Positions 4,576 through 57,864 of a DNA stretch of 64,000 nt are shown here, piece after piece. Position 1 is the first letter of the stretch; each line of letters opens with the position of its first letter. Source of the stretch: Enchytraeus crypticus (taxonomy: Eukaryota; Annelida; Clitellata; Enchytraeida; Enchytraeidae); contig CAJHZI010000232.1 of assembly GCA_905160935.1 (NCBI GenBank), positions 62,001 through 126,000 on the forward strand, in the 5' to 3' direction. A program made the translations under genes and the position numbers. Below the pieces are notes generated by a model, which did not search any database, was not told the origin of the DNA, and saw only the letters and a program-made list of their open reading frames with translations.

Positions 4576-5334
4576 TCTCCTGGTTTCAAATTTGCAACCT
4601 AATTTAAATTATGAAATTTATTACTCGTTCAGTTGATAGCAAATGCTATATATTATGATCATTTTTCTGTGGAAGTACACGTGTTTACCAAATCGTCTCT
4701 CAAATATTGGATCAAATTTTAGCCAAGACATCTCCTCATAATTATCAACGTTTCTAATATATTGGCCTAGTGACAAAATTTATTTTTAAATTGATGAAGC
4801 ATTCTATTTGCTGGTTCAAGGAGAATATTTCGGATACAGTAATAAAGCTAAATATCTATTTTATAAACATTTGTTGGTCAACATACAATATTTTAAGAAA
4901 TGTACATGAATAATTACCACTTCTCTCCTTTTTTCATTGTCATATTTTTACTCAGGTGAAAAATGTGGCAGTAATTATGACTTCATGTATTTTTTGAGCA
5001 TATTTACCATAAACCATTTTAAACATGTATATTATAACCATGATTATTATAAGTAATGTTAATTAAACAATTTCAACATTATCCAAACCAAACCATTTCG
5101 AACTTGAATCGAACTCTTGTGAGGTAGAAAGCAAGCCGAACCCGAACCGAACCCGAACTCTTGTTAGAAGGATGCCGAACCGAATTCTAGAATTGTCAAC
5201 TGCTAACCGAACCCGAACCGAAATTTTCAACAAACCGAACCGAACTCTGAAATTGTTAACTGCTAACCGAACCCGAACCGAACTTTCATTTTCAACGAAC
5301 CGAACGCTGGAAATTCATATAATTCCCATCTCTA

Positions 5335-24012: not shown

Positions 24013-24094
24013 ATGAAAATATTAGCAAGGTGGACTTGTATGCTGCAGCTATTGTGTTATATTGTGGGTCTATCTATCTGCAGTTCATTTCCAG
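24013..24094 (+). CDS. receptor exon 1: start codon and signal peptide
   Basis: ATG at 24013 opens 27 codons plus one base. After a Lys/Arg-containing start (MKILARW) comes a hydrophobic core (LQLLCYIVGLSI) and a CSSFP cleavage-like region. Donor CCAG/GTATTC at 24095 leaves phase 1, matching the phase 1 start of the EGF exon, and the joined codon is Val. The next in-frame ATG would lie inside the hydrophobic core, so this start is preferred. Confidence 0.55.
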
Positions 24095-30000: not shown

Positions 30001-33000
30001 ACTGGAGAGATAGAAGACTAATTTTAAACTTGTACATGAATTCTGGAGCACTAGAGCAGTATTCAAAATCCAACAAGAATACTCAGAAGAAGGTGAAATA
30101 GGACGTGGAGTAAGTCTAGGTTGTAGCATTTTGCCGCTGGTGTTCAACATTTATGCTGAGGCTGTGATGAAGGAAGCTATTGAAGACATGGTATGAGGAA
30201 TAAAGTAGGAGGAAAATTGTTACAAGATGATCGATTTGCAGATGACCAAAGAATGGTTGTGGGCAGTGAGACTGAACTGCTGAAGATAATGGATAGGCTG
30301 AATGCTACGGCATTGAGATATGGCATGAAGATTAGTATCAAAAAGACCGAAGTGATGAGAGTATCCCATAATAAAGGTGAAGTTAATATCACTATAAATG
30401 GTATGAAATTGAAACAGATAAGGAGTTTCAAATATTTGATGACGGGAATGTGATACTGAATATGCAGTAGGATTGCACAAGCAAAAGTGGCCTTCGGTAA
30501 TAGGAAAGAACTTTTATCAAAAGGTCTAAAGGAAGACACAAAGATAAAGATAGTGAAAACTTTTGTTTGGACCACGCTATTGTATGGATGTGAAACATGG
30601 ACCTTAAGGAAGGAAGATATTAGGAAACTAGAGGCATTAGAAATGTGGATTTGGAGAAGACTGGAGAGGGTTAGCTAAAAGGTTACAAAAAAGGAAGTTC
30701 TGGCGAGAGTTGGTACAGATAGACAGTAGATAAATGTATTAAGAAATAGGAAGAAGAGTTGGATATGACACATTTTAGCAGGGAAAGTCTTTTAACAGAG
30801 GTCTTAGAAAGTAAAATGGAAGGAAAAAGGAGCAGAGGTAGGCCAAGATTAGGTATTTTCGATAATTTAAAGACCCTCTGTTATATGGATATGAAGAGGA
30901 AAGCGGAAGGCAGAGAAGAGTGGAAGCGTTATACATCATGAACCTGCCAGTAGGCGGTGCACTTAGTGAGAGAGAGCGAGTTGATGATGATGATGATGAA
31001 TTTTATTGCTTTTGACGCAGTTCCGTGTCCTAAAGGCACATTTGGTGCAGACTGTCAGGGTGTATGCAGGTGTCTGAATGGTGCAGATATATGCAGGTCT
31101 GAGGACGGGCGATGCACGGATAGGTTGTGTAGCCCTGGCTGGACCAATCCTCCGCTCTGTCAGTCGGGTTTGTATTCAAGTGAATTACTTTTATTTAACA
31201 TTTTGTGGCGACAAGAGACTTCAAGTGGCGACTCAGTAAGAATTAAGGAAGGCAACCCGATACCACTTCAGAAGCCTTATTATTACCAAACTTTACATTA
31301 AGTTGTAGACAAGGCATAGCCTTTTGTGAAGGAATTACTTGTTAGTCGACGGAGTGCTCTTTGTGAAACCTAAAGACAGCATCTATGCACATACCTTGAA
31401 TCTGTCTCTTAACAAAACACTAAAGAGAGTGATAACTTTTTATAGTATTTCTTAATTTTTACGATCAGGAATTGTTGAAATTGCCAACCTATGATTTAAG
31501 TTTGCAATTTTGAAAGTGTTTAAATTGCCATGCATGATTACTTCTCTATTCTTGTTAAAGTTACAAAGGTACTCGATTTTAAGTGACATAAACTACTTAT
31601 AGCAATATTTATGTAATTACTAAGGCTGGCAGTGATACAAAATTTCAAATCCAATATCAATATTAATAGTTGATATCGTTTTCGGAAACTTGCGAGACCG
31701 GTACCAGCGTCAAGAATTATGTGTATAGACCTTTTGTAATATGTAGTGGTAATTCTGTTCACATAATAAACAAAGCCTAGTGGGGGAGAGTGGGGGAGGG
31801 GTGTGTGCTTATATTGACGGCTGGCAATTTTCAGTATATTCACATATATGTTTTATGTATTTCTTCTTTTATTAATAGAATGGTGTTTTAATTTCTTATA
31901 TTCAAAATTTATCTTTCAATTACTTACCAAATGATGATAAACATATATCTTAATTTACATTTAAGACATATCTAGATAGAATATCTAGAGGGGATATATA
32001 TTATATTTTTAGGACATATTACATTTATAGGACATATTATATTGCAGTTGCCTTCCGCTAAGCAATAAAGTTTATCATTGCATGGTGGCATCCTCCAATG
32101 AATGAAGAAATATATATTTTTTGATTTTTCTAAATAAACACCATTGTAAAAGGTGTACCCCTAATCTATATTGAAATTTCATGTATGGTCTAGATTTATA
32201 ATGCTTCATTAAATTAAATTTTTATTAATTGCCTCAATTGAAGAAAAATTGCAATGTTTAATATTTCATTATTTTAATATTTCCATTTATTGTTCTATTC
32301 GGCTAGAAGTACTTGTATAAACATTTGTTTTAGTTGAAAAATATAATTTCAGGCCTTGGTCTCGACCGAGACTTGATCCAACTCCTGCATTTCCTCTTGA
32401 GACATGATGGACAAAGTTTTAGTCTGGAGTCCATTTAAAAGATCTTGTTAACATCACTGCTATAAACTGTAAAATGACCCTTGGCTGTTTCAGGAAGCTT
32501 TAATAACGCAAGATTTATTTAACTTAACATTTAGAGTACAGGACAGTTATGGTAAACAGGATAGTTTTCTCAGGGAATGATGCCCCTGCCCAGTAAAGGT
32601 TAGTCGAAGCTGAGGAAGGCATAGGGGGCCCACCTCGTCATAAACAGTGTCCCCAAGAGTAATGGTATATCAAAAGGAATGTTATAGTTGATTTTAAGAT
32701 CCACTCATATGTGGACATGAAGAGGAAACTGTAAGACAAAGATGATTGGCGTTGTATGCCATGGACTTGGCAGTAGGCAATGCACTAAAAGAGAATTAGA
32801 GTACAAAGAAAACCACTGAGATATAGATAGTGAAAACTTTGGTTTGGCTCATGGCAAAGTTTTATGAAAGTTTTATGAAGTTGATATGAAACATAGACAT
32901 TAAGGAAGGAAAGTGCCAGAAGACTAGAAACATTGGAAATGTGGTTATGGAGAAGAATTGAAACGATTAGCCAGACCCAAAAAGCTATTAATGAAGTTCT

Positions 33001-36000: not shown

Positions 36001-39000
36001 CTTACCATTCCTATGAAGTCAGAACCGTAGACGGGTTAACCAGAAGAAGGGCCTCCAGAAACATAATATTTTCCTGAGAGCCTCCTGTTATTATGGATTC
36101 ACATGGACCCCAGATGCAACGAAACCACTGCCGCCAACAAATATAAGCCATCAGCAGACACAGAAAGAAAAGAGAAACAGCTGTGAAACAAGTTCCTCAA
36201 CCAGGATCAGTGATGGAGTTGCAGAAGGTGCCTGCCGTCAACCCAAACAACCAACCGATAACTACACTACCAGAGCGGGCTGAGTCATTGTCAAACCAAA
36301 GCGTTATTGTAATTTGTAGGGTCTAATAATGTGCATCCGAAATTTATTTTAAAGAAAAAGGTGGATGTAACGTGAGTAATAAGAAACTCTATAATATAAA
36401 CTACTGAGTCGTAAATACTAGGATGTTACACTATCTGTTGAGTCCTAAACGATAAGATGTAATGTGATCATTTCAGTATAAGATTACCATTATCATAGTC
36501 ATTAAACTGTCAATGTTGAGAACAGATAATTAAGCTCACTTATTGAACAGTGGCACAGAGGATTATAATCTTTGCAGTTGTCGTGTCTATGTTGTCTATT
36601 GATATGCATACTGTAATCAAGTTTATTACAATAAAGAGTTTATATCTTTATCGAGTTGTGCTGGAGTTAGTTATTTTGACGTTAGTAGAACACCTAGCGT
36701 TACAGCTCATTGGACATATAGCCTACTGCTCATTTAGTTGTTTATATATAATTCTGAACTTGTTGTTAGAGTGTCCCTCGGGAACATTTGGCTCGAACTG
36801 CTCGTGGAGCTGTAGGTGTCCACCGATGGATGTGTGTAACCCGGTCAATGGTCTTTGCTCCTCAGGCAGATGTCTTCAGGGCTGGACTGGTCAGTCGTGT
36901 CAGACACGTAAGTCTCCTTTAATTAGATTCCCTAGTTGATGTTTCATTGGCTGCTTTCCCTTGAAAATTGCGCTAGAGATGTAATTCTACTTGTATTTTT
37001 ACGCATAAACAAAAATAAAATTAGATTTCTCATGGTTTGAAAGCTTATGCGAAATTTTTGTATTCAAATTTTTCGAAAAAGGATGCATTTTTATACTTTT
37101 TAGTGAGCCAATTTAAGAAGATTACTGAAATGTTTTTTACAATTATCACTGTCTATCCTTGCTTGAAGTGTCATGAGCCTGATTCGTAATTTTTAGCGCA
37201 AGGTTGAGCTAGCTTTATCAAATCTTCATTTGAAGGTGTTAATGATGAATTAATTTTATGAGTGACTTGATAGCAGGCATATCATTTAGTCAAATTGTTC
37301 TGTTTTCTTTTTATATGTATATATGTATCTACGTGAATGTTTTGTATGTTTTTCTGTGTATATAATTTTCAAAATAAGATAATTTTGTTTTGGTCATTTG
37401 ATAATTTGTTTGTTTGTTTGTTTACATCTTTTAAAGAATGATATTTTAGAAATCAGAAATAAATTGATACCTTTAACATATAGGTCAAAAGTAAAATGCA
37501 AATGGTCAACTAAATTATGCAAAAGGTTAAGGAGAGCAAAGAGACGAGCTTGGGATAAATATATAAAATCGGGTAGAAAATTGTCATATTACAATAAGTA
37601 TAAGGAGAAATTAAGCAAGTCTACTAAGGCAAATGATGAGGCAAGGAATCAGTTTGAGATTAAATTAGCTAATGATGTAAAAAATGACAATAAAAGTTTC
37701 TTTGCCTATGTTAGAAATAAAGAGAGGAACAAAGCTAAAGTAGGTTCACTGCGGGATGCTGATGGTATCATTATCACTGATGATGAGCTCACAGCAAACA
37801 TGTTCAATGACTATTTTAGCAGTGTTTTTATAGTAGAAAATCTAGATAATATTCCAATATCAGATAGAATATTTACAGGTCTAGAATCAGAATGTTTAAG
37901 TGAATTAGTCATTGATAAGGAAATAGTTTTAAAGAAACTTAGTGAAATTAACTGTAATAAAAGTCCAGGTTCAGATGATCTTCATCCTAAGTTACTATTT
38001 GAGCTGAGACACCAATTAGTAGGTCCCCTTACTAAATTGTTCAATCTATCGCTCGAAACTGGGATTGTACCTCAAGACTGGAAAGAGGCTAGGGTGTCTC
38101 CCGTGTTCAAGAAAGGTAGAAGAGACAATCCTGAGAACTATAGACCAGTTAGTTTGACTAGTATCATAGGTAAGGTGTTTGAGAGCATTATTAAGGATAG
38201 TTTAGTTAAACATTTAAATAGTTATGGATTAATAAGAAATAGTCAACATGGATTTACCAGAAATAGATCTTGTCTAACAAACATTTTGAGCTTTATGGAA
38301 TCCGTCACACTGCATGTTGATAACGGTAATCCAGTAGACATTGTCAATTTGGATTTTGCAAAGGCGTTTGATAAAGTGCCTTACGAGAGATTGTTTTGTA
38401 AACTGGAAGCTCATGGAGTTACTGGCTCTGTCCTGAATTGGATTAGAAGTTGGTTAACCTCCAGGAGACAAAAAGTTTGCATTTCAAATCATGACTCGGC
38501 TTGGCTCAATGTCACTAGTGGGGTTCCACAGGGTTCAGTGTTGGGTCCAATTTTATTTTTGGTTTACATTAATGACTTAGACAACAGCATAATATCCGAA
38601 ATGAGTAAGTTTGCTGATGATAACAAATTATGTAAAAATATAGGTTATCTAGAAGATATGTTGTCACTTCAGAGAGATTTAGACAGTTTGCATAATTGGG
38701 CAACTACCTGGCAGATGAGCTTCGATGTTGATAAATGTATAGTTATGCATGTAGGTCACAATAATAGTTGTAATCAATATAAACTTGGTAATGCAGAACT
38801 AAAATCATCTATTAAGGAAAAAGATCTAGGTGTCATTATTGGTAATACCCTATAATTTTCAGAGCAGTGTAAATCAGCAGCAAATTGTGCTAATTGCACT
38901 TTAGGTTTAATTAGGAGAACTATAAAAAGTTGTAATAAGGATGTAATAGTTAAATTATATAAAGCATTAGTAAGACCTAAATTAGAATAGTGCGTACAAG

Positions 39001-42000
39001 CGTGGAGACCTTTTTAAGGAAGGATGTGGAATGTATGGAAAGAGTTCAAAGGAGAGCAACTAGAATGATTGCTGAATGTAGAGGTCAAAACTATGAATCT
39101 AGGTTAGATGTGTTAGGTCTAATTAGTTTAGAAGATAGACATACCAGAGGGGATTTAATTCAAGTGTTAAAAAATAATTAAAGGTTTTGACAATATTGAA
39201 TGTGGAGAATTTTTCAAACTATCAGATTATGCTAGAACCAGAGGGCATAGATTCAAAATAATAAAGGTTAGATCCAGATTAGAAGTTGGAAGAAACTTTT
39301 TCAGTCAGAGAGTTGTTAATATATGGAACGGGTTACCTCAGTATGTAGTAGAGGCAGAGTCAGTGAATGCTTTTAAGAATAGGCTAGATAAGTATTGAAA
39401 AGAAATACATTGAATTGATAATTTGTTTGTTGTTTTGTATAGATAGGCTGATTAGTTTCACACTACATGAAGGTATTTGGTTTCTAGGTATTCATGAGTG
39501 TGGGTAAGGCTTGTATGTGTATGTATGCGTAGGTGTTTGTATGTGTGCACACATGCATGTATGTCTATGTATGGTTGTGCTTGTATGCTGTAATGTATTG
39601 TAATGTATGACTATATATTGCGACTGGTTGATATGCCTAGTATGTAGTTATATGCATGCTTGCATATTTTTGTCTGTAAGTTCGATGTGTGTATGTGTGA
39701 GTGTATTCTATGTGTATATATGTAGGTGTATGTATAAGTGTGTATGTTTTGTATATATGTATGTGTATGTATATATGTATATGTGTATGTGTATATGTAT
39801 GTGTATATATGTGTGTATATGTGTATATATGTACGTATGTATATGTATGTATGTGTGTATGCATGTATATATGTGCGTGCATGGGTATGTATATGTATGT
39901 GCATATGGGCATATTTATGTGGATATGGGGTATGTATGTATGTATATGTATATGCATATAAGTATTTGATAAGTGTATGTATGTTTATGTATGTGTGTAT
40001 GTGCATGTGTGTGTGTGTATGCATGTACATGTATGTGTGCATGCATGGATGCATAATGTATGTGTATTTGTGCATAGTTGTGTACCTGTATGTAGGTTTA
40101 TATGTGAGATGGTTATGTGTGTGTGTGATATTTTGGTGAGTGTTTAGTTTTTTCTTATGTTTGAAGCCTATCAACTTGTCAAGGTTTGTATCTTCTGTTC
40201 CCTTTACGGTTTCTATGTATAGAGGTATGAAATTACATCAAAAAACTGGTGTTACAGGTCCTTGTGACTTCCTTAACCAGTATAATTATGTTAAGTTAAG
40301 TTAATCTGTAGTTTGTAATTTAAATTTAAAGGTATTGACTGTTCTCTAAATCATTATTAATCTTTAAAAATGAATTGAATAAATTTACTAGCACTTGGAC
40401 TTAATATTGATTGATATAGTTGTTTAGTTTTCGAGCTCTAGGAAGTTAGCAATTATTTTACCCCTCTCGATTGATAGACAAACTGATTGATTGCTATTAT
40501 AACAGAGTTGCCACTGTTGAACGACCCACCTATTGTGCTCAACACGACGCTCATGTCTATAACAGTGTCGTGGCCTCGCTGGAAGAAGGATATCACAGGT
40601 CTGGGGGATGGCCCAATACTGACTTATATACTTGAGATAATGAGCAGTATGTCTGGATCGGTGTGGCAGAGAGAAGCCATTATACCAGAGGCTGAACATT
40701 CTGATTGGCTTCTACACACTGTGAAATCTCTACGACCTCGTGCAAGCTATAAGCTGAGAATTCGACTGGAGAAAAGAGATGGAGATAAAAGTTTACTGTC
40801 AGATCCGGGCAAAGGGACAGAATGGATCAAGCTTAACTGCATAAGTTTGTTCGGTTATTTGTTTGGAAACTAATAGATTTTCTGTTCCTCCACAGTTACT
40901 AAGCTACATCAAATATATCATTAAAAAATATTTCACTACTCAGCATATTGATAAGAAAAATTTTCTACTGCAAAGCTGACGCAAGTATTTAATTTTCAAT
41001 TAATCAGTCGCTTATGTCTTTGGCTAATCTCCACGGACTACGAATAAAATTTAAAATTTAACAACATCATTATTCCTCATTGTCTGTAGGAGCTAACAAT
41101 AAATTTTATCGTTTAGTGCCGTTTATTTGTTTATCCCAACACAGATTATACAAACAATAGGAATGTGCATGTAGTTAGATAAACAAATAATACAAAAGAG
41201 GCCACCATAAAAGAGCCATAGCTCTGTTCGGTAATGCCGTAATTAGTAGCTATAGCAGAGTCTAATTGAGTCTGAAATATAAAAAATTTATATTACATTG
41301 CCAATTACAGTAAAACGAATTAAATTGCTACAGTTAGTAGCCATTCAATTGAATATTTTCAAATTAGGAAATGGCCAGACACTGGCAAGTGAAAACTAAC
41401 AATAAATCTTTGAAAACATCTCTAAATTATAAAAAAATTTAACAGGTAAACTAAGTTCATACTTATAAAGAGCAAATAAACTAACTGAAATAAACTTAAG
41501 AGTGCAAAGAAAATGTAATGATTACTAATGAAACAAGAAAAGACAAAGCAATGAAACAAATGTAGTGTCTAATTAACTAGTACAAGCGCTCAAAGAAAGC
41601 ATTACTAGTATAAATTCGTAAAGGCTTAATGAATTTTGATTAAATATTAAACTGAAAAATTATTTTAAAATTAGAAATAGACGTAGCATTTTTAAAATTA
41701 AATCTGGCTAGTTATTCCATTGTTTAGGACCACTTACAGATATGCTTTAAGAGAGAGAGAGATATGTGTAAATTTCAGCATCAACACCAATCCATTGACA
41801 ATTACAGATTACAAACACAGATTCAATCAACATAGTGTAGATCATAATAACACAAAACTATAAAAAGTGCACTTAAAATAAACACAGGTGTGCAGATGTG
41901 CTCAAGACATAGCAATCAAATAGCTACTAGCAATAGCTAATAGCTACTTTTAATTCATATATTTGTACGTGAGAAGGGAACAATGAATTCATTAACATTT

Positions 42001-51000: not shown

Positions 51001-54000
51001 GTTACTGGTCAAAGCTGCTCTTCTGAACTACCCCTCATACACAGTGTTCCTCAAGGTTCAGTGTTAGGTCTATTGCTCTTCTCTTCATATATCACTCCTC
51101 TAAGCTACCTGCTTGCACAGTCCTCCGTAAATTTTCATTCCTATGCTGATGACACACAACTATACATTTCCTTTTCTAATAATGATTCCGATCATAAACT
51201 AGCGCATCTCTCATCCATTTTAGACAAGGTTTATTCCTGGTTTTGTGCTAATCCTCATGCTGTTAATCCCTCCAAAACTGAATACCTTTTAATCGACACT
51301 CCTTTGCAAAGAAGTAAAATTACTAATAACTCTGTTAATTTTCGGAATCTTGCTCTTTCACCTTCTCGATCCGCCAAAAAGTTTGGAGTCATATTTGATG
51401 AAAACCTTGACTTTAAATCCCATCTCTTCTGTTTGTCGCGCTTCTTTCTTTCAGATTCCTCAGATTAGGCAAATACGTCTATCCCCTACTAGAAATTTGG
51501 CCACCAGCCTTGCTAATTCTATAGTTCATTCACAGCTGGACTACTGTAATTCAAATAACATTCAAAACTCTGCGATTTGGCAATGGCAAGCCTTCTTACT
51601 TATCTGAAATTCTTCTTCCCTATCGTCCCTCATGCGCACTTTGTTTCACCAATGCCAATCTTCTCTCTGTTTCAAATATTCTCACATCATTAGGTAGACA
51701 TTCATTTTCTTACGCAGCACCTACAACCTGGAACTCTTTACCTGCTAATCTTTGCTCGTGTTTTTCTCATTCAACATTTTCTAACAAGCTTAAGACTTAC
51801 CTTTTCCCACTATAGACATAATAATTCTACACTGACCATTTTTAGATCACCGGACTGGTTTTCGTTTAGGACCTTTCTTCTCCTCAGGACATTTCTGTTG
51901 CAGATTGGTCTGGGTGATTTGATCTGTAGTGATGTTTGCTGTTTACGTCCCTGACATCATCCCTGGATGAGGAGACGGACGTTAAACCTTTATTATTATT
52001 ATTGTTATATTAAGCAACAATTTGAAATCTAGTCAGCATTAATTAGAAAATAGCTAAAGTAAAACTATTCCTACATATACAGTCATGGCCAAAAGTTTAG
52101 CACCGATGAGCATTATTCACTAAAAATTTGTATAATGTGCCTTAGTAACAATATTTCCCAAGTGAAAATCGGTCAATCACTAGAAACATGATGCTGGGCT
52201 GTCACTTGTTACTAAATACACTTGTTTGATTAATACAATGATTATTTGCTTGAGTGATTAGTGTCTGGCATGATACACCCTCTGTGAACCAGGCAAGGTA
52301 AATATTCCAGTTTGCAGACGTCCAGCCAGAGACTGTTCAAGCGTAGCCGTAGACTTCACCAGTGACCGTCAAGTAACTTGTTGGTTGTTAGGAAGTTATT
52401 GTCTGTTACGTAACTGAACTCTGGTTCACTATTTGGTACTTACGCCCTCTTTTGGCAGCCCAGCTTATGTATGTATCTCTCTCCTACTGGTCATTTGATA
52501 AATCGACTTGAATAGTTCACAGTATAGGACAGGAGTTAAGCCATTTATTGAATTATCACTAGAATTCCCTTGTAGTAGCAAAACAACTTAGTTTTTGACA
52601 TTTTGCATACAATATTATACTCATAAGGTAATAGATTTGAAATTGTATCAGCACAATGGGAAAATCCAAAGAAACTTCTCCTATAAAGCGTGCACAAATT
52701 GTGGTACTGCATGAGCAGAACAGGTCTCATAGTGAGGTAGCTAGACGTTAACACATAGCCAAGTCGAGAGTGACTCGAGCTATAGCGAGAATGAATGAAC
52801 TGAGGTGCTATAAGTCTCGCAGAAGGTCTGAACGTCCGCGCATCACCTCGCCTCGCACTGACAGAAAAGTCCGACGTGTTGCTACAGCGCATTCAACCTG
52901 GTCATCAGCGTAAATTGCTTCTCAAGCACGATCAGCAGTAAGTGGCAGGACTGTGAGAAGACGTCTTCTAACTGAATTCAACCGACCATCGCGACGCCCA
53001 GCAAGGAAACCTCGCCTGACCGCCAAGAATATCAAGGATCGCCTGAGGTTCTGTAGAATCTACCGTCACTGGACGTGTGATAATTGGACGAAAGCTCTCT
53101 TTTCGGACGAATCAACGTTCTCGCAGTTCAGATCCTACATCAGAAACGTGCGGCGTCCAGCAAATCAACGGTATAACACCCGCTATGTGATACCGTCTGT
53201 GCGGCAAGCACCAACAATAATGGTCTGTGGAGCTTCTCAGGAACTGGTAGAGGTGGCCTATGGTTTATGCCGAAAAATACTTCGATCAACGGACACAAAT
53301 ATCTATCAGTTTTGCAAGATAAACTATTGTTAAACATGGAATTGCTTAACTGTTCAATATTTCAGCATGATAGAGCGCCCTGCCATCCGTCAGCCATTGT
53401 TACCAACTGGCTCACAGAACAAGGTGTGGAGGTCCTTGGACCTTGGCCTGGGTCCAGCTCAGATCTCAATCCTATTGAAAAACTGTGGGTTTGCATGAAA
53501 CAGAAGGTAGCAGCAATGAATCCGTCATCTGAACAAGAACTTATTAAAGCAATTAAGCGAGTGCGGACTAGCGAAATAACACCCAAGTACTGTCGCAATC
53601 TTGTGCATTCCATGCCTGACCGGATTAAAGCAGTCATTGCAAACAAAGGAAGGCACACCAGATACTGAGACTAGTGAAAATATGGATGTAGTACATTGAC
53701 ATTTAATAAACATAAACAGTAGTTGCTTTACTTTTAGCACGTCTGGCGCTACAGATTAATGTATGGCAAGTTTAGTGTATTTATCTAATCGGTGCTAAAC
53801 TTTTGGCCATGACTGTATGTTAATAAAGTAAAAAATAGGGTAAGCCTATGAAATGTAAATGATACGCTCTTTAATCTTTACTTAGCTGGTGCAAAGACTT
53901 AAAAATAGGCGTAACATGTGAGTACTTGGAACTACAAAAAATTGCTCGCGCAAGAGAATTCTGAACAAACTGCAACCGATCAGTCTCACAGCCAGGGAGA

Positions 54001-57000
54001 TTTAAAAACAGGGAATTGCAGTAGTCCAACTTCGATTGCACAAGAGCAGCACCAATTGTAGCAGCTGTCTCACGTAACAAAAATGGACGTATTCGACGAA
54101 GATGACGGATAGTGAAGAAACATGCTTGTGAAGTTTTTGTTATGTGTTTGTGGAAAGTTAGGTGTTTATCAAGGGTAACACCGAGATTTCTCACAGAAGA
54201 AACAGGTGATATTGTATTACCCGAAGATAACGAAAGAGTTTTACCATACAGCTTCAGAAGCTGTTGAGGTGTCCCATCCAACAAGAATTCGGTCTTAGAT
54301 TGATTAAGTGCCAAGAAATTAGCAGACATCCAAGAGGATGTAGGCTGATAACTTTGTTGTAGGAGGGTCCAAGCATCAGAATAGGAATTAGGGGTTAAAC
54401 AATTGTACATTTGAGTGTCATCAGAATATAGTTCCTGATCAAGAGAATGAGAAGAGAGCTTAATGTTGTTATATAGAGGTTGAAGAGGATAGGATCAAGA
54501 ACGGAGCCTTGAGGCACACCATACTTTAAGTGGGAAGGCGAAGAGATATACTCCATCAATTTCACATTAAAAGAACGATCCGTCAGATAGGAGGGAAACC
54601 AACCAAGAACAATTCCTCGAATACCAAATCAGGAAGAAAGACGTTCCAGAAGAATATCGTGATCAATGGTATCAAATGCGGCCAAAAGATCAAGCATACA
54701 TAATCCAGTTAAGCGTTGCGTGCATACGGCATTAACAATAGAATTGCACACAGATGGAAGCACAGTTTCAGTTGAACGATGCTAAGTACAAGCAGCTTGA
54801 TGCTTATTAAATTGATCATTGTAAGAGAGATGAGTAGAAAGCCTCAGAGGAACAATTCTTTCAGTGAGTTTAGATATGTATGACAGATTAGATACAGGCC
54901 TGTAATTCGACAATGATTCCTTATCCAGTGTGGGCTTTTTAAGCAAAGGAGTAATAACTGCGAGCTTTAAAGCGCTAGGAAATATGACAGTAGAGAAAGA
55001 AAGATTAACAATCAGTGCTAATATAGGAGCAAGAATGTGAATACACTTCTTTAAAAGAGACGTTGGGATAGGGTCCAAGTCACAATGTTTGGCTGGAGAG
55101 TCTAAAACTAATTTAGTATTCTGTTATATTGTAACTGGAATGAAATTAGAAAGCTCGTCCTTGGAATGATTCTCTACTGGAGTATGAGGAGTAGAGTTAG
55201 AAGCTGGAGTGATAGATACTCTAAGATTCATTCAAGCATGCATACAAAATGAAGTTTTATTGCAATTTATCGTCTACAGGCGAGATAAATCCCTGTTCCC
55301 CTCTATGTATCTAGATGGGGGAAAGGGCCCGGCCCCCTTTGGCCTGGTGATCAAATTGTTATTGTTTTTATTGTGTTCATGGCTATATGTGTGTGTAATT
55401 ATGTACAGAATATGCGAGTATGAAAACTAAAGGGTATGAAAACGGTGTAAGTAAAAGAAGTTTTTTCCAGGTGAAGGCGTGGGTGTAGGATAAACAAAGA
55501 TATCTATCTAGATAGTGTCCAAAATAATTTCGATGATTATCATACAGGAGTGTTGAATAATGAATATTAGGGAAGCTGATAATTACTGGCTGTGATTGTA
55601 ATTATTATTATTAATTGTTAATTGACATTATGTAATTCTAAGCAATAGGCTGGAGCCAGTGGCGATGTCGGTAAGTTATTCGACCGCAGATCAGTATGTG
55701 CGGGCTTAAAATCCTGGGCTCGCCTGTCACTGGCATCACTTTCAAGTGAGGCAATTTACGTTAGCATTAGCTTAGCTTAGCTTTAGCTTTTACGAAATAG
55801 AACAGCCTGCAAGGTGGCAGTTGTGTGTAATGAGATATTAAGACCGCACTCCTCACATCTTGAAAGGAACATTTTAGATATGTGTGCCTGCCAATTTGCA
55901 ATCTTTGAGGTCACCCACCAGTGTGACCTCTATCAAGGAGGTTACTAGTAGAATCAAGGCTGGGTGGGTAAAGTGGAGTGCAGCCAGTAGAATGCAGTGT
56001 GAATGAATGAATACCACTACGACTGAAAGGTAAATTTTATAGTTCGTAATTAATATTTCGGTGGTTAGGCCAGTTATAATATATAGTGTAGAGCACGGGG
56101 CACATATTAGGGAAGAGGAACAGAGGTTGCATGTGGCTGAGGTGGGAGTATTGCTTCTAATGTGCGGTAAAGCTAGGAAGGATAGAATTGAAAATGAATG
56201 TGAGAACGAATTTGAATGTTGAGGGGATTAGGGATAGGTTAGCTCAGTCGAGATTGAGATGCTATGGTATGGCCATATAGTGAGAAATGCAGAAGAGCCT
56301 GAGGAGGATGTAGTGGAGAAAGTATGGAGGGACAGATGTAGGTTAAGTTAGAGAGAGGTAGACCATAACTGACGTGTGATGTGATAATTGAGAAATATGA
56401 AATTAGGGGATTATATTATCTGTTGATATAGTTGGGACAGAGAGAAGTGGAGAAGGTCTATTCGTAGCCCGACTCTAGCTAAACTGGGATCCTTCATCCA
56501 AGGGAAGTTGATTATGATGATGATAATGTTGATGATGGTGATGATGATGATGATAGAGGTCACTCACCACTGATACTAATTCAGTGGTCCTTAAGTGGAA
56601 ATATGTTGATATTGGTCATTTTAATATCTGGTTAAAAATCTGAGTTTTAAAGAGACTGATCAATTAACCAGTGACCCACAAAATACATGTATGTGCTAAG
56701 ACGATATTGAATTTATATCTGTTTTAGCCACCAGAACTTACGTCGGCAGGATGCAATCGTATTGATAGTTTTGACATAGTGCTCAGCTGTGCTGGAGGAT
56801 GTACTGGCTCAAGGCAAAACAAGCCAAATATTGAACGCGAGTGGACGGCTTATGTCGGCTATGAAGACACTCTGGGTAGCTCTGCAAGAATAAGTATACG
56901 AGTGGTGAATGATGAAGGATTGGCTGGACCTTTCTCTCAGTCAGTGCCGGTCATCCTTACTTCACAAGAGCCAGCCACCATTCAGTCAAACGACGACAGT

Positions 57001-57864
57001 AGTACAACCGCATCTGGAGTTGATACTGAATCCACTACTATGGGATTGTTTAGAGAGTTGATTACTGCATGTGGTGGTTCTGATTGTACAACGGCTGACA
57101 ATATGGAACTACCGCCAGCTGGTGGCAGCAGAAATGAAACAATGCATAGCGAGTATATAACGGTGGGTAGGATTATTACCTATTGTTCATAGTTATTTGA
57201 GGTCACTGATCCGAGAGATGGACCATTGACTGTTAAATTCCTTAAATGTGAGTCTGTTGGAGCAATGTAACGAAGCTTATCAATTTGAAATTTTATAATG
57301 GAACTATTTCTATACAGAAAATTGCACTTCTCATTTACTATCTAGAATTCAGCCAAATGACTCATATTTCTAAATATAGTCTGTCTGATAGTAAGCTTGC
57401 TATAAAGCGCTAAAGATTAACAAATTCTTGCTAATAATAAGCGCTGTAGAATAGGTGATTTATCTCAACACCAAGATTGTGTTTCATCGTATCTCAATAT
57501 AGCCATTTTTTTAATGTTGTGTCCGAGGTGGATATCCGATGCCTTTCTTGAGTACCTGCATTAGTGTGCTTTACGCATGAGTAGGGTTTTGGATTGGTTT
57601 ATGTTCAAATTTTTAATCGAACTTGTTAAAGTCGACATTTGCAAACATGTAAAATTTACAACGATTTATTGACAGTTCTGAAATGCTATTTATATATTTT
57701 TAATGACCATCTATTTGTATTCTACATTACAGCCCAAGTCCGCTGTCGGTTTAACAGGAAATGCTATGAAATTGCCACTTATTAGTAGGGATACAACCTT
57801 TATTGTTGTTCAGCCCACTCCAGATATCAATCCTCTGTTTGTTCTGCAGTCTCACAATGTTGAG
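24013..57864 (+). CDS. EGF/FN3 modular receptor-like protein, seven exons, incomplete 3'
   Basis: Exons 24013-24094, 31021-31167, 36770-36907, 40506-40844, 47989-48062, 56728-57162 and 57733-57864 join in phase (1,1,1,1,0,0, last donor phase 0) to give 449 codons without a stop. Order: signal peptide (about 1-24), EGF-like modules (about 29-75 and 78-121), FN3 (about 128-225), second FN3 split over exons 5-6 (about 237-335), then a Ser/Thr-rich region with extra cysteines. It should enter the secretory pathway and present ligand- or matrix-binding modules outside the cell. No transmembrane segment or kinase domain is seen before the window ends. EGF-plus-FN3 architecture occurs in Tie-type receptor tyrosine kinases and in adhesion proteins, so the family is open. 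Exons may be missing in the long introns. Confidence 0.6.
24150..24845 (+). pseudogene. family D L2-like LINE RT fragment
   Basis: Frames 24013-24360 (from about 24150) and 24455-24754 encode RT blocks: a STETALLRI string, a broken LSAAFDTIDHDI motif A (about 24418-24455), SQASVLGPLLLCLY motif B and YADDTQLDI motif C, followed by VNPSKPEYLL. Stops and frameshifts make it inactive. An H3 fragment cuts it at 24846. Confidence 0.7.
24846..25060. mobile_element. H3 hAT-like element, truncated copy
   Basis: Starts CTGTGGCGGATCAAGGGGGC and follows the interior of the 21920 copy closely (ATTGTTTCT, AGGACAGTGGTTGGGG, GAGAGGGAACTCAGTTCC). It breaks off near 25060 where a SINE1 fragment begins, so the right TIR is missing. 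A short hairpin, GAATTAGGTC paired with GACCTAATTC, sits at about 25053-25083. Confidence 0.7.
25092..25195 (-). repeat. SINE1, 3' part
   Basis: The plus strand reads AACATAACAT, CACTGGGTCAGGAAGCACAG, then CCATGGTTATTAGTAATCG, as in the longer copies at 33672 and 42304. Only the 3' third is present. Confidence 0.65.
25205..25522 (-). pseudogene. family A LINE RT fragment
   Basis: The minus strand encodes the A-family thumb block (GMKINIK-like, RGEVNIIINGMK, then KIKIVKT), readable in the inverse of 25331-25520. It is interrupted by stops. Confidence 0.65.
25536..27797 (+). mobile_element. family C CR1-type LINE
   Basis: Begins in the endonuclease-RT linker (SKWFNAEARKW, KSFEEKLSKNVKIDAKSF). 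RT follows: LTPHLCKVLENIIKDEL (26213), YLDFRKAFDTVPHKR (motif A), GVPHGSVLGPLFFLIFIND (motif B) and KFADDTKLFG (motif C, about 26670). A one-base shift near 26512 separates two frames (26213-26515 and 26476-27003). An A-rich tract at 26978-27040 has disrupted the coding region before LEYCISLWRPHYRKDIEF (27056-27286). A later block reads RVIDRWNSLSEG (about 27417). The 3' end is CTTAAACAAGCATATAATTG then (TTATG)n at 27746-27797. It is 5'-truncated and inactive. Confidence 0.85.
27798..28870 (-). pseudogene. family A LINE fragment
   Basis: The minus strand covers, in order from 28870, the linker (KSHARKEFRKLN-like), a GELK-equivalent region, KPVQ (about 28515), the RT start, then CLDYRIISLIHHASMILLNI and KAQFGFRKGCGT (28341-28123) and VCFVNFDKAFDRID (about 28110-28050). 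Multiple stops are present. It abuts the CR1 C tail on its 3' side. Confidence 0.75.
28854..28976. repeat. two-copy tandem duplication of about 60 bp
   Basis: CACTTGTGAACCAAGG, TTTTTTAGAAGTTTTTGCTT and CAAGAAAACTATGTAGTTCT (first unit) recur after a few bases as CACTTGTGAACCAAAG, TTTTTTAGAAGTTCTTGCTT and CAAGAAAACGATAGTTCT (second unit). Both lie in the linker part of the family A fragment. Confidence 0.75.
29265..30965 (+). mobile_element. family A LINE with 5' inversion
   Basis: 29312-29512 is minus-strand family A from GELKTELEEVK to the VKEEF-x-SA block. 29540 onwards is plus-strand A starting exactly where the inverted part stops (SMKKGKAARIDDIPTEF). It continues through CLDYRTISLIPHVSKI-like, QFGF, VCFVNFEKALDKI, RFADDQRMVVGSE (about 30230), EMWIWRRLERVS (30640) and RPRLGIFDNLKT (30840), ending GGCGGTGCACTTAG near 30955. 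A 48-base piece matching the family B 3' tail precedes it (29265-29312). Stops and shifts make it inactive. It ends about 55 bases before receptor exon 2. Confidence 0.75.
31021..31167 (+). CDS. receptor exon 2: EGF-like module 1
   Basis: 147 bp, phase 1 at both ends, acceptor TTTTGACGCAG, donor CGG/GTTTGT. It encodes PCPKGTFGADCQGVCRC then six-residue spacings to the final CSPGWTNPPLC. The eight cysteines are spaced C-x8-C-x3-C-x-C-x6-C-x6-C-x4-C-x9-C, as in laminin/MEGF-type EGF repeats. A symmetric 1-1 exon is typical for shuffled extracellular modules. The acceptor sits directly behind a family A tail and a GATGAT run, so the intron end is repeat-derived. Confidence 0.75.
31168..31717. 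other. intron, no recognised repeat
   Basis: AT-rich intron sequence after EGF exon 2. Nothing specific was recognised. Confidence 0.35.
31718..32146 (+). repeat. dispersed repeat J, copy 2
   Basis: Same orientation and order of motifs as 13608-13997, for example TATGTAGTGGTA, ATAAACAAAGCC, GGAGGGGTGTGTG, GACGGCTGGCAATTTT and GGTGGCATCCTCC. Expanded by TTAGGACATATTA-type internal duplications around 32005-32045. Confidence 0.55.
32548..32800 (+). mobile_element. family A mini-element: 5' UTR fused to 3' end
   Basis: 32548-32690 matches the family A 5' UTR at 45160-45275 (AAACAGGATAGTTTTCTCAG, CCTGCCCAGTAAA, GTCGAAGCTGAGGAAGGC). It passes at about 32690 directly into the family A 3' end (ATGTGGACATGAAGAGGAA, ATGCCATGGACTTGGCAGTA, GGCAATGCACTAA). 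All of the endonuclease and RT are missing, giving a roughly 250-bp derivative. Confidence 0.7.
32810..33235 (+). pseudogene. family A LINE C-terminal fragment
   Basis: A frame at 32933-33136 gives EMWLWRRIETISQTQKAINE and the EVVEGRMEGKG block, then shifted sequence to about 33230. The WIGHI-type motif is degraded. A separate copy from the mini-element before it. Confidence 0.65.
33412..33465 (+). mobile_element. family C CR1 3' tail, severely truncated insertion
   Basis: TCTTAAACAAGTATATAATT then GCTTCCTGACTGTAATGTTATGTTA is the last ~50 bases of CR1 family C (compare 27746-27797). It sits between two endonuclease segments of family A that are contiguous at 45790-45830. Confidence 0.75.
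33672..33960 (-). repeat. SINE1, near-complete copy inside family A endonuclease
   Basis: The minus strand starts GCGGGATATAGAGCACTTGG (pol III A-box-like) and ends CGGACCCAGTGTTCCATTATG, TTATG-type tail. It splits the endonuclease reading frame between a RKPGD-like end and the QLDYIL block. Confidence 0.75.
34940..36704 (+). mobile_element. Gypsy-type LTR retrotransposon, 5'-truncated
   Basis: Degenerate integrase: an N-terminal part (34964-35242) with a QLLRRQVISGQP string, then the core (35294-35512) with CSVCLEQEINQGKETL, HRPWEKVGIDIFTF and LIAVDYLSGYLK, including the first catalytic Asp (GIDIF). A C-terminal part (35847-36077) has RQTVRFIELDDSEWRKGEI and a TRRRASRN tail. A purine tract AAAGAAAAAGGTGGA (36351-36365) precedes an LTR at 36366. 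Integrases of this type splice retroelement cDNA into chromosomes. Stops and shifts show this copy is dead. No gag, protease, RT or 5' LTR remains. Confidence 0.75.
36366..36704 (+). repeat. 3' LTR of the Gypsy element
   Basis: A 339-bp LTR starting TGTAACG and ending with its inverse CGTTACA. It follows a polypurine tract and contains AATAAA at about 36631. The end is 65 bases before the splice acceptor-bounded receptor exon 3 start at 36770. Confidence 0.75.
36770..36907 (+). CDS. receptor exon 3: EGF-like module 2
   Basis: 138 bp, phase 1-1, acceptor CTTGTTGTTAG, donor CAC/GTAAGT. It encodes CPSGTFGSNCSWSCRC through to CLQGWTGQSCQ. Eight cysteines are spaced C-x8-C-x3-C-x-C-x5-C-x6-C-x4-C-x8-C, nearly the same as module 1, so the two exons probably arose by duplication. 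Strongest exon call in the window after the FN3 exon. Confidence 0.8.
37430..40304 (+). mobile_element. family I CR1-type LINE, one long RT frame
   Basis: 5'-truncated. A frame of about 470 codons (37430-38855) covers linker helix (WSTKLCKRLRRAKRRAWDKY), KSFFAYVRNKERNK, DDLHPKLLFEL, YRPVSLTSIIGKVFESII, NLDFAKAFDKVPYER (motif A), GVPQGSVLGPILFLVYIND (motif B), KFADDNKL (motif C) and the thumb. After a TAA at 38853 and a TAG near 38988 the C-terminus continues: ALVRPKLE, RVQRRATRMI and FSQRVVNIWNGLPQYV to about 39400. The 3' UTR holds a (TATG)n satellite and ends CCTTGTGACTTCCTTAACC with (TTAAG)n at about 40258-40304. It is the youngest-looking LINE here, though two stops make it inactive as read. 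Confidence 0.85.
39490..40140 (+). repeat. (TATG/TGTA)n microsatellite tract
   Basis: About 650 bases of imperfect GTATGTATATGTGTATG-type repeats inside the CR1 3' UTR. The repetitive sequence keeps all frames open (Tyr/Val/Cys-rich or His/Thr-rich), so the long frames on both strands here are not genes. Confidence 0.9.
40506..40844 (+). CDS. receptor exon 4: fibronectin type III domain
   Basis: 339 bp, phase 1-1, acceptor TTGCTATTATAACAG. It encodes an FN3 fold: PPIVLNTTLMSITVSW (B strand with conserved Trp), a GPILTYILEIMS strand, then SLRPRASYKLRIRLE, equivalent to the conserved L-x-P-x-x-x-Y motif, and a closing SDPGKGTEW. NTT is a potential N-glycosylation site. Donor A/GTTTGT at 40845 leaves phase 1 and is the only good choice in phase with exon 5. 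The same donor hexamer is used by exon 2. Confidence 0.75.
40845..41109. other. intron, nothing recognised
   Basis: AT-rich intron sequence between the FN3 exon and the minus-strand family F element. Confidence 0.35.
41110..45118 (-). mobile_element. family F non-LTR element (Jockey/CR1 superclade)
   Basis: Read on the minus strand from 45119: endonuclease block GYSFVSCCRPVKPRRGVGLF, then MGDFNINLLLHDSHWHACNF and RINTLTELLMDNIF (44732-44409), RT start SHSSGYDEISMNYLLKYI (43742-43488), an AFDTLDHKVLLKK-like stretch (about 43250), SSGVPQDSILGSLLFLLYI and FLLFADDTNILYS (43122-42871). The C-terminus with RAIRIVNNCNC and NEFIVPFSRTN (42250-41955) lies beyond the SINE1 insertion at 42304-42592. 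41110-41930 is probably its 3' UTR (inverse contains AATAAAC near the end) but that part is inferred. Frameshifts and stops throughout. Confidence 0.7.
42304..42592 (-). repeat. SINE1, best copy
   Basis: The minus strand begins GGCGGGATTAGCGCACTTGG (TAGCGCACTTGGTTAAG is an A-box-like start). The body contains ATTCTTAAATCCGCGCCGGC, and the end is GGGTCTTGAACAAGCATCTG, TGCTTCCTGACCCAG, then (TTATG)n. A B box was not found. The 3' tail matches the end of CR1 family C in its stem-loop and TTATG repeats. Inserted in the C-terminal region of family F. Confidence 0.75.
45160..47065 (+). mobile_element. family A LINE with 5' UTR and endonuclease, RT deleted
   Basis: 5' UTR from about 45160. Endonuclease: INVGTWNGRTMGERGKLENI (45412), INVLGMSEVRWLG, VLIQVYMPNIRSA, a DWNAMVGEGREGNEIG block (45850) and a broken SDHSLVMAKVRL (46128-46160). 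The linker follows to 46780 (KPVQEDFK). RT starts with EIYSAFKSMKTWKAAG and at about 46873 jumps straight to the C-terminal LLTEVIENRMKGK and RLGMLHGLRTYSYVEMKR-like blocks. It ends CCATGGACCTGCCAGTAGGC at about 47045. A retained 5' UTR and 3' end with RT missing means it could move only in trans. An SDHN-to-SDHS change and shifts suggest it is dead anyway. Confidence 0.75.
47520..47740 (-). repeat. SINE1, copy lacking the 3' tail
   Basis: The plus strand has GATTTAAGAATAACTTTCCA, CACTCGGTCTTCTAAAGTGG and TTAACTAAGTGCGCTAAATC, the inverse A-box-like head. The TTATG tail and conserved stem-loop are absent. More diverged than the 42304 copy. Confidence 0.65.
47989..48062 (+). CDS. receptor exon 5: start of second FN3 domain
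   Basis: A 74-bp exon, phase 1 to 0, acceptor GTATTTCTGTTAAG, donor AAG/GTAAGC. It encodes PTGLVTEIEAVQDVLKRAVL then VTWK; VLVTW is the FN3 B-strand Trp motif. It continues into PPELTSAGC of exon 6, completing the expected VTWKPP. Supported by phase: the FN3 exon before ends in phase 1 and the next starts in phase 0, and this exon bridges exactly that change. Confidence 0.7.
48063..48380. other. intron, nothing recognised
   Basis: AT-rich intron sequence after exon 5. Confidence 0.35.
48387..48500. repeat. GATTTAAAT cluster, possible hAT-type end
   Basis: TAGAGATGATTTAAGTTGG is followed by repeated CTGATTTAAAT and CGATTTAAATCG units within about 100 bases. A TAGAGATG start plus a short-period subterminal array recalls H1. 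An inverted partner end was not found. Confidence 0.4.
48845..49120 (-). mobile_element. family B-like LINE 3' UTR fragment
   Basis: The plus strand reads ATCACCATCATCTTCCC, CCCAGTTTAACTAGAGTCGG and CCATACCATATCATCAGTCA, as at the 3' end of family B (7785-7900). No coding sequence remains. Confidence 0.6.
49210..49409. mobile_element. 200-bp mariner-type MITE
   Basis: Left end CAGGATGAGTAAAAAAA and inverted right end CAGGGTGAGTAAAAAAA differ at one position and are flanked by TA on both sides (49208-49209, 49410-49411). The TIRs extend imperfectly to about 28 bp. There is no coding capacity. TA duplication and TIR style fit Tc1/mariner. Confidence 0.75.
49690..50778 (+). mobile_element. family C CR1-type LINE, 3' half replaced by family D
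   Basis: Starts in the endonuclease (ATRESNILDLTLTSDENEIE, GYSDHNTIIYKF; SDHN is the catalytic His motif). It continues through MLSKWFNAEARIWQIKKYAM and KSFEEKLSKNVKIDAKSFYS to the RT start, and stops at AGAGTATAATAAAGGATGAG. At the equivalent point the copy at 25536 continues with its own RT, but here family D follows directly. Confidence 0.75.
50779..52015 (+). mobile_element. family D L2-like LINE, fused behind family C
   Basis: One frame (50830-51468) encodes LLDLSAAFDTIDHGILINRL (motif A), SVPQGSVLGLLLFSSYITPL (motif B), YADDTQLYISF (motif C) and VNPSKTEYLLIDTP. A shifted C-terminus follows, with WNSLPANLCS near 51730. The 3' tail is TTTACGTCCCTGACATCATC, GGAGACGGACGTTAAACC and (TTA)n. 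It is the best-preserved family D RT here, truncated exactly at the junction with family C. Confidence 0.8.
52080..53815 (+). mobile_element. complete Tc1-like transposon with broken transposase
   Basis: TIRs CAGTCATGGCCAAAAGTTTA (28 bp in full, 52080-52107 and 53788-53815) are flanked by TA at both ends. The transposase runs from ATG 52656 to 53668. An N-terminal HTH region (KRAQIVVLHEQNRSHSEVAR) is interrupted by two stops, a second HTH contains SGRTVRRRL, and the catalytic core has LFSDESTF, FQHDRAPCH and SSSDLNPIEKLW. By my count 35 residues separate the second Asp from Glu, not the Tc1 standard 34. A frameshift around 53270-53330 splits the core. The enzyme would cut at its TIRs and insert at TA, but this copy cannot make it. 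Confidence 0.85.
53860..55150 (-). mobile_element. family G L2-like LINE
   Basis: On the minus strand: DPIPTSLLKKCIHILAPI and NYRPVSNLSYISKLTERIV (55078-54782), a shifted LAAFDTIDHDILLERLSS motif A region (about 54680), YGVPQGSVLDPILFNLYI (about 54510), a degraded YSDDTQMYNCL catalytic box (Ser for Ala), then WMSANFLALNQSKTEFLLDG and SKLDYCNSLFLNLPG (54410-53871). It differs from family D in sequence but has the same L2 order. Inactive. Lies next to the Tc1 element. Confidence 0.8.
55151..55654. other. intron, nothing recognised
   Basis: AT-rich DNA between family G and SINE2. A 73-codon frame at 55209-55430 has no recognised motif. Confidence 0.35.
55655..55795 (+). repeat. SINE2 (tRNA-derived), copy 1
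   Basis: Aligns with 61277-61400. The head GCCAGTGGCGATGTCGGTAA carries the pol III A box and CGGGCTTAAAATCCTGGGCT the decayed B box. The tail is TTAGCTTTAGCTTTTA. The B box has lost the consensus G-T-T-C, so this copy is probably silent. Confidence 0.7.
55918..56550 (+). pseudogene. family B RTE-type LINE, 3' fragment
   Basis: Diverged thumb region (GAGGTTACTAGTAGAATCAA, GGGTAAAGTGGAGTGCAGCC), the C-terminal GGATAGAATTGAAAATGAAT block, then the 3' UTR AGCTAAACTGGGAT and AAGGGAAGTTGAT with (GAT)n at 56510-56550. Matches the minus-strand copy at 7784-8340. Full of stops. Confidence 0.7.
56728..57162 (+). CDS. receptor exon 6: rest of second FN3 and Ser/Thr-rich linker
   Basis: 435 bp, phase 0-0, acceptor TATATCTGTTTTAG, donor ACG/GTGGGT. 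It begins PPELTSAGCNRIDSFDIVLS, then CAGGCTGS, SARISIRVVNDEGLAGPFS (FN3 F-G strands) and SVPVIL. After about residue 75 it becomes linker-like (QSNDDSSTTASGVDTESTT) with a CGGSDC motif and an NET glycosylation site. Cysteines in this FN3 suggest an extra disulphide. Ends within YIT. Confidence 0.75.
57733..57864 (+). CDS. receptor exon 7
   Basis: 132 bp, phase 0-0, acceptor TTCTACATTACAG, donor GAG/GTAATG. It encodes 44 residues including AVGLTGNAMKLPLI and TTFIVVQPTPDINPLF, with no cysteine and no transmembrane segment. No domain was recognised. Called an exon because both splice sites are good and the phase fits; the protein must continue downstream. Confidence 0.55.

What the first reader, a model, noticed from the sequence alone, without database searches (positions are those of the whole stretch)
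24013..57864. A seven-exon EGF/FN3 receptor-like gene hidden among transposons
Six of the seven exons are 150 bp or more of small islands in repeats and one is only 74 bp, yet signal peptide, two EGF modules and two FN3 halves join in phase (1,1,1,1,0,0) into 449 codons. The short exon was predicted by a phase mismatch and supplies the missing VLVTW strand. The fit of phase, domain order and strand is hard to get by chance. The 3' part (membrane span, any kinase) lies outside or undetected.
Basis: partly seen in the sequence, partly recalled or inferred. Interest (0 to 1): 0.75.

Follow-up and report, generated by a model that had tools for sequence, protein, structure and literature searches.

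The report
Receptor phosphatase gene with dead enzyme
The seven exons are the outer half of an animal cell-surface receptor whose inner half, found just beyond the window, is a phosphatase-type domain that has lost residues needed for catalysis, so it is a phosphatase-like receptor and not a Tie-type kinase.

Summary
One detail is wrong: two of seven, not six, reach 150 bp. The domains are real (EGF pair E 1.4e-6; fn3 just over Pfam's cut-off), and the 74-bp exon is needed for the second FN3 match. The Tie/kinase idea fails. The window lies on contig C150 of a 524-Mb genome. Exon 8, 3.1 kb past the window end, carries on in phase with a transmembrane span and a protein tyrosine phosphatase domain (184.6 bits); exon 9 extends a second one. 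A paralogue on C564 has homologues of exons 2, 3, 4, 7 and 8 in the same order. The gene is a receptor protein tyrosine phosphatase (RPTP) with an N-terminal EGF pair, one of a multigene family. Its D1 lacks the essential arginine (HCELGGGPSG) and D2 shows no catalytic cysteine: predicted dual pseudophosphatase, as reported for human PTPRU. No RNA evidence was available. Real gene, unusual variant of a known kind.

The parts
24013..24094 (+). Exon 1: start codon and signal peptide MKILARWTCMLQLLCYIVGLSICSSFP, ends phase 1
   Evidence: first of 18 candidate first exons by hydrophobicity; paralogue C370 also has a separate signal exon with a phase-1 donor (sequence printed, border read by eye). 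C564 instead has signal and EGF1 in one open frame
31021..31167 (+). Exon 2: first 8-Cys EGF-like module, phase 1-1
   Evidence: homologous exons on C564 and C208
36770..36907 (+). Exon 3: second 8-Cys EGF-like module, phase 1-1
   Evidence: EGF_STAB1-2, 20.1 bits for the module, below its cut-off 27; 17 matches in the genome outside this gene at E<=0.001
40506..40844 (+). Exon 4: first FN3 domain (FN3a), phase 1-1; donor 40844 weak, alternatives 40808 (GC) and 40853
   Evidence: fn3 25.5 bits in the joined protein, 20.9 for the exon alone; C564 homologue to the end of the domain; donor scores
47989..48062 (+). Exon 5: 74 bp, A/B strands of FN3b (VLVTWK), phase 1-0
   Evidence: exon 5+6 join gives FN3 hits, exon 6 alone none, reversed-exon-6 control none
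56728..57162 (+). Exon 6: rest of FN3b and Ser/Thr-rich linker, phase 0-0
   Evidence: no other match to it in the genome at E<=0.001
57733..57864 (+). Exon 7: start of FN3c, phase 0-0; continues in phase to exon 8 outside the window (C150:129095-132301) and exon 9 (C150:140872-141099)
   Evidence: C564 homologue 44% over 16 aa (E 0.031 in a lenient 3.9-kb search, next best match 1.2), borders in phase 0 by eye; joining it extends an FN3 match in C564 (20.8 against 17.8 bits)
37383..38855 (+). Non-LTR retrotransposon reverse-transcriptase frame inside intron 3 (490 aa open)
   Evidence: Pfam RVT_1
52683..53668 (+). Tc1-like transposase remnant inside intron 5
   Evidence: Pfam HTH_Tnp_Tc3_2, DDE_3 26.8 bits, just below its cut-off 28.6; open frames

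Best explanation
The exons are the extracellular half of a receptor protein tyrosine phosphatase (RPTP) of an animal. The gene runs over at least 55 kb (C150:86013-141099) with at least nine exons and 1594 codons so far: signal peptide, two EGF-like modules, two FN3 domains, a Ser/Thr-rich linker, a third FN3 (by homology to C564) and a divergent membrane-proximal region, one transmembrane span, tandem phosphatase domains D1 and D2. Shown by sequence: domain order, phases, homology to RPTPs, loss of the P-loop arginine in D1, no cysteine at the P-loop site of D2. Inferred: it is catalytically dead and works as a cell-surface adhesion or ligand receptor whose inner part recruits or shields phosphotyrosine-pathway proteins by binding, as proposed for PTPRU, in balance with active-looking paralogues such as the C208 gene.
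For: Exon 8 (3207 bp) starts at a phase-0 acceptor that fits the phase-0 donor of exon 7; its stretch has 0 stops in this frame against 50 to 105 in the other five. It holds a transmembrane span (mean hydropathy 3.25) and Pfam Y_phosphatase, 184.6 bits in two stretches; the best PDB matches are PTPRA, PTPRE, PTPRS and LAR (E 8.5e-51 to 8.9e-42). Exon 9 raises the D2 score from 26.5 to 52.2 bits. C564 has EGF1, EGF2, FN3a, exon-7 and exon-8 homologues in the same order on one strand. On 9 of the 11 contigs with an EGF match, C150 included, a phosphatase match lies downstream on the same strand within about 8-45 kb. Catalytic motifs against PTPRA: HCSAGVGRTG to HCELGGGPSG, NRYVNILPYD to NRSCRVVPYD, MVQT to MIST. 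In D2 the HC of the C208 sequence falls into an alignment gap of this gene, whose nearby letters are LALSSSDTDRGRAG; read without a gap, by eye, Cys is Ser. C564 (50% identical in D1) also lacks the D1 arginine, while C208 and C370 keep C-x5-R.
Against: No transcript links the exons. The exon 4 donor is weak. The exon 7+8 join of this gene alone gives no FN3 match, and its one PDB match is an unrelated bacterial protein (Lin2960) at E 0.045. Exons 5 and 6 have no convincing counterpart in the 3.9 kb of C564 searched, and exon 6 no match elsewhere in the genome. The WPD loop (WRNDAEVP) may still keep an Asp in a loop one residue longer (alignment). In the ungapped reading D2 would keep an arginine. 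The last coding exon was not found.
Confidence: 0.87

Rival explanations
1. Tie-like receptor tyrosine kinase: EGF and FN3 ectodomain followed by a kinase.
For: EGF modules and FN3 domains in this order occur in Tie receptors (recalled); the kinase could have lain outside the window.
Against: The in-phase continuation is a phosphatase; no kinase motif in 144 kb of the contig by a six-frame motif scan; no Ig domain by Pfam in the 449 aa.
Confidence: 0.02
2. Two genes: exons 1-7 end in an unseen 3' exon, and exon 8-9 is a separate phosphatase gene.
For: 9.2-kb intron between exon 7 and 8; the exon 7+8 join of this gene alone gives no FN3 match; no RNA data.
Against: Matching phase 0 on both sides; the same exon order in C564 within about 12 kb on one strand, with phase-0 borders of the exon-7 homologue; the exon-7 join extends an FN3 match there; EGF, FN3, transmembrane and phosphatase frames follow each other on C208 and C370 too (read by eye; 83).
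Confidence: 0.07
3. Decaying pseudogene: catalytic residues were lost because the gene is dead.
For: Several catalytic motifs are changed; transposons fill the introns.
Against: 1594 open codons without a stop; the exon 8 frame is clean while the other five hold 50-105 stops; C564, 50% identical in D1, keeps the fold and also lacks the arginine, so the state looks old and maintained.
Confidence: 0.08
4. D1 keeps activity by non-canonical chemistry or towards another substrate.
For: The cysteine of the D1 P-loop is kept; an Asp may remain in the WPD loop. PTPRQ shows that motif changes can shift substrate (passage of PMC7320164).
Against: The arginine of the C-x5-R motif is replaced by proline, and the NRY and QT motif residues are changed.
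Confidence: 0.08

Closest known systems
PTPRU (human R2B receptor phosphatase; two pseudophosphatase domains, PMC7320164)
   Same: FN3-bearing ectodomain, one transmembrane span, tandem phosphatase domains, both predicted (here) or shown (PTPRU) to lack activity
   Different: R2B ectodomains have MAM, Ig and four FN3 (passages of PMC10815196), no EGF pair named there; the PTPRU D1 changes described in the passages seen (WPD Asp to Glu, a conserved Arg to Cys) are not the changes seen here. Pfam Fn3_PTPRU does not match exon 8 at E<=1 though it matches paralogues C208 and C370
R2A/R4 RPTPs (PTPRS, LAR, PTPRA)
   Same: Best sequence matches of exon 8 (PTPRA, E 8.5e-51) and of the C208 D1-D2 (PTPRS, E 2.3e-94)
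   Different: Those have an active D1 (recalled); no EGF pair (the term EGF occurs 0 times in the main text of the RPTP ectodomain review PMC10815196)
C208 gene of the same genome
   Same: EGF pair, FN3 frames read by eye, transmembrane span and D1-D2 in one large frame
   Different: D1 keeps WPDHGVP and HCGTGISRS, so it looks active; more FN3 frames; 30% identity in D1
Tie receptor kinases
   Same: EGF modules followed by FN3 domains (recalled)
   Different: No kinase, no Ig domain found; phosphatase instead

Membership tests
Receptor protein tyrosine phosphatase (RPTP) | Y_phosphatase domain | tested here: met
   PF00102 184.6 bits against cut-off 20.9; genome search E 1.8e-46 at C150:130934-131731
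Receptor protein tyrosine phosphatase (RPTP) | single transmembrane span between ectodomain and phosphatase | tested here: met
   VAIAVVVAGVLLIVAILLSIL, hydropathy 3.25, residue 872 of the joined protein, before the D1 motif at 1269
Receptor protein tyrosine phosphatase (RPTP) | FN3-bearing ectodomain | tested here: met
   fn3 25.5 bits against cut-off 25; FN3b by PDB hits, best E 0.016
Receptor protein tyrosine phosphatase (RPTP) | tandem D1-D2 | tested here: met
   second domain 52.2 bits when the end of exon 8 and exon 9 are joined, profile positions 51-221 of 234
Catalytically active PTP | C-x5-R P-loop motif | tested here: not met
   D1 HCELGGGPSG; no cysteine at the D2 site
PTPRU-like dual pseudophosphatase | both domains without catalytic activity | not testable with these tools
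   predicted from motif loss only
PTPRU / R2 subfamily | Fn3_PTPRU membrane-proximal domain (PF23144) | tested here: not met
   no match at E<=1 in exon 8; 49.3 and 33 bits in C208 and C370
Tie receptor tyrosine kinase | tyrosine kinase domain | tested here: not met
   no kinase motif in 144 kb of C150; phosphatase in phase instead; family search for kinases not answered
Tie receptor tyrosine kinase | immunoglobulin domains | tested here: not met
   none in the Pfam scan of the 449 aa at E<=1

The most novel reading that the evidence does not exclude
An old clade of EGF-bearing RPTPs (this gene and C564) lost catalysis before the two copies parted and has been kept as non-enzymatic adhesion receptors beside active sister receptors (C208 type), a PTPRU-like decoy system that arose independently in this animal. 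The two copies replaced the arginine by different residues (Pro, Cys), so separate losses are not excluded.
Probability: 0.45. Interest if true: 0.5.

Novelty: new variant of a known kind. Interest (0 to 1): 0.36.

Why it matters
PTPRU is described as unique among the RPTPs in having two pseudophosphatase domains (PMC7320164 abstract). An animal with a family of EGF-FN3 receptor phosphatases, some active-looking and some dead by sequence, would allow a test of whether dead copies compete with active ones. It also shows that a gene model built by eye from exon phase was right about structure and wrong about family because the diagnostic domain lay outside the window.

Tried and rejected
Homologues of the first 225 aa (an early join with one extra residue at the exon 1/2 border) among 5.8 billion predicted proteins: 42 candidates, none at E<=1e-3. 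Scans of viral contigs (nothing) and genome contigs (7 stretches matched a pattern, one encodes a 36% match to residues 177-244 on a Bacteroidales MAG contig, not followed up). AlphaFold of exon 4 alone: pLDDT 49, not usable, so no fold search was made. Pfam scans of the + strand frames over about 24-64 kb found mostly transposon domains and sub-threshold EGF (E 0.21) and fn3 (E 0.13) traces, and no family in 54-64 kb at E<=5; the minus strand and 1-24 kb were not scanned. Among phase-0 candidate exons between 57864 and 64000 none was hydrophobic enough for a membrane span (highest 1.52). Rfam and tRNA scans of the window: 0. The GC donor of exon 4 was considered and set aside on the C564 alignment. 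A small FN3 profile from 6 local domains proved too weak to discriminate. Papers: PMC8662651, PMC5336234, PMC10815196 and PMC7320164 were seen as passages found by term (abstract of PMC7320164); PMC9640194 as title and start of abstract in a listing. Searches aimed at EGF-bearing RPTPs (2 papers, 76: 0, 90: 8, 96: 8 of 38 listed) showed none in titles or abstract starts; of these only PMC5336234 was looked into, by passages. That does not show absence from the literature.

Full report
Observation. The seven exons were found at 24013-24094, 31021-31167, 36770-36907, 40506-40844, 47989-48062, 56728-57162 and 57733-57864 on the + strand. Their lengths are 82, 147, 138, 339, 74, 435 and 132 bp, the phases are 1,1,1,1,0,0 and the joined frame has 449 codons without a stop. 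None of the seven overlaps the 33% of the window that is repeated within the window.

More than chance? The EGF pair matches PDB 6u11_A at E 1.4e-6 over the first and most of the second module. The joined protein just reaches Pfam's fn3 cut-off (25.5 against 25 bits; exon 4 alone 20.9) and has a sub-threshold Stabilin-type EGF match; contactin-4 aligns across both FN3 domains at E 0.006. The 74-bp exon was tested by leaving it out: exons 5+6 joined match five PDB sequences at E<=10, four from muscle FN3 proteins and one RIM-binding protein, best E 0.016, with the junction WK|PP inside the best alignments; exon 6 alone has 0 matches; exon 5 plus reversed exon 6 has 0. By splice, phase and length criteria exon 5 ranks first of 8 candidates in its intron (the acceptor floor equalled exon 5's own score), and exon 1 ranks first of 18 candidate first exons by hydrophobicity. 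The splice matrices were generic and recalled. Against: exon 4's donor is poor, and 1 of 500 shuffles beat the exon 5+6 join in a small local FN3 profile.

Where the window lies. The genome search placed the window at C150:62001-126000 of a 524-Mb, 802-contig assembly. The exon 3 module had 19 matches at E<=0.001: exon 3 and exon 2 of this gene and 17 others on ten further contigs. Exon 4 had one other match, on C564 beside that contig's EGF matches. Exon 6 had none besides itself. The exon 7 search did not complete.

The 3' half. On C564 (minus strand) the paralogue has signal-EGF1, EGF2, FN3a, an exon-7 homologue and a 1396-aa frame with FN3 pieces, a transmembrane span and a phosphatase domain. 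Searching C150 with that frame led to a 1074-codon frame in L023, 3.1 kb past the window end. Pfam: Y_phosphatase 184.6 bits in two stretches. Genome search: C150:130934-131731, E 1.8e-46. PDB: PTPRA, PTPRE, PTPRS and LAR lead the list of 242 matched sequences (60 shown). Its acceptor at C150:129095 is phase 0, as is exon 7's donor, and the frame has no stop while the other five frames of the stretch hold 50-105. A further exon (C150:140872-141099) extends D2: 26.5 bits without it, 52.2 with it. So far nine exons, 1594 codons, about 55 kb; the last exon was not found.

Is exon 8 in the same gene as exons 1-7? Phase and order say yes, and C564 shows the same order within about 12 kb. In C564 the exon-7 homologue (16 aa, 44%, E 0.031 in a lenient local search) has phase-0 borders by eye, and joining it improves the fn3 match from 17.8 to 20.8 bits (cut-off 25) and extends it from profile positions 44-80 to 6-80. 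In the window gene the same join has no Pfam match and only an unrelated PDB match at E 0.045. On C208 and C370 EGF, FN3, transmembrane and phosphatase frames follow each other on one strand (partly by eye; 83); C370 has a separate signal exon with a phase-1 donor like exon 1. Of the 11 contigs with EGF matches, 9, C150 included, have a phosphatase match downstream on the same strand within about 8-45 kb; C332 and C342 do not, nor do 7 plus-strand EGF matches on C786 (read off, where 150 of 236 phosphatase candidates were scored).

Catalysis. Against PTPRA, D1 reads HCELGGGPSG for HCSAGVGRTG (the C-x5-R arginine is proline), NRSCRVVPYD for NRYVNILPYD, MIST for MVQT, and WRNDAEVP for WPDFGVP of the WPD loop, where an Asp may survive in a longer loop. 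The roles of the C-x5-R, WPD and KNRY motifs are given in passages of PMC7320164; the role of the QT motif is recalled. In D2 the HC of C208 falls into a gap of this gene; read without a gap by eye, Cys is Ser and an Arg would remain. C564 D1 (132 of 262 aligned residues identical, 50%) also lacks the arginine; C208 and C370 (30% and 29%) keep C-x5-R in D1, C370 with an altered WPD loop (WKDED), and both lack the arginine in D2 (HCADGASQSG, LCSDGFTQSG). I therefore predict that both domains of this gene are dead. That is inference from sequence.

How it may work. Shown: a membrane receptor layout. Inferred: the EGF-FN3 part binds a ligand, matrix or neighbouring cell; the dead phosphatase domains bind proteins without dephosphorylating them. 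PTPRU is described as having two pseudophosphatase domains and as competing for substrates of active relatives (PMC7320164 abstract and passages), and PTPRK recruits Afadin through its pseudophosphatase domain (title of PMC9640194). Loss of the arginine should weaken phosphotyrosine binding, so recruitment through other surfaces is as likely as substrate decoy.

Verdict. It is a member of the RPTP kind, in a variant with an N-terminal EGF pair and two domains predicted dead. Whether EGF-bearing RPTPs are already described in other animals I could not settle: the main text of the ectodomain review PMC10815196 does not contain the term EGF, and four literature searches brought none in the listings seen.

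Noticed in passing
3619-5315 and 60862-62424: Probably two inverted copies of one element that carries TTCGG-rich minisatellites (unit about 34 bp): arms 4099-4234 / 61956-62091 are 95% complementary, 4695-4790 / 61466-61561 83%, 5205-5305 / 60863-60963 85%.
   Followed up: no
G000 contig C786, about 27-170 kb: Seven plus-strand EGF-module matches about 16-33 kb apart without a listed plus-strand phosphatase match, beside minus-strand phosphatase and EGF matches at 235-258 kb: possible tandem array.
   Followed up: no
L036:2-841 (C208) and L042:561-3401 (C370): Paralogue ectodomains hold basic stretches (GRKKKRAT; RRKRA) in the membrane-proximal region, like furin sites of LAR-type receptors (recalled).
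   Followed up: no
L033 (C564:about 242.3-243.9 kb and 235.0-238.8 kb, minus strand): The C564 FN3a exon runs on in frame into a long Cys/Ser/Asn-rich low-complexity stretch (514-aa open frame), and its phosphatase domain is split by a Ser/Asn/Gly repeat.
   Followed up: partly
L001:5001-5192: A Bacteroidales MAG contig encodes a 36% match to residues 177-244 (FN3a to FN3b); could be a bacterial FN3 domain or a chance match.
   Followed up: no
44087-44214: Two 65-bp tandem copies, 93% matching, in intron 4.
   Followed up: no
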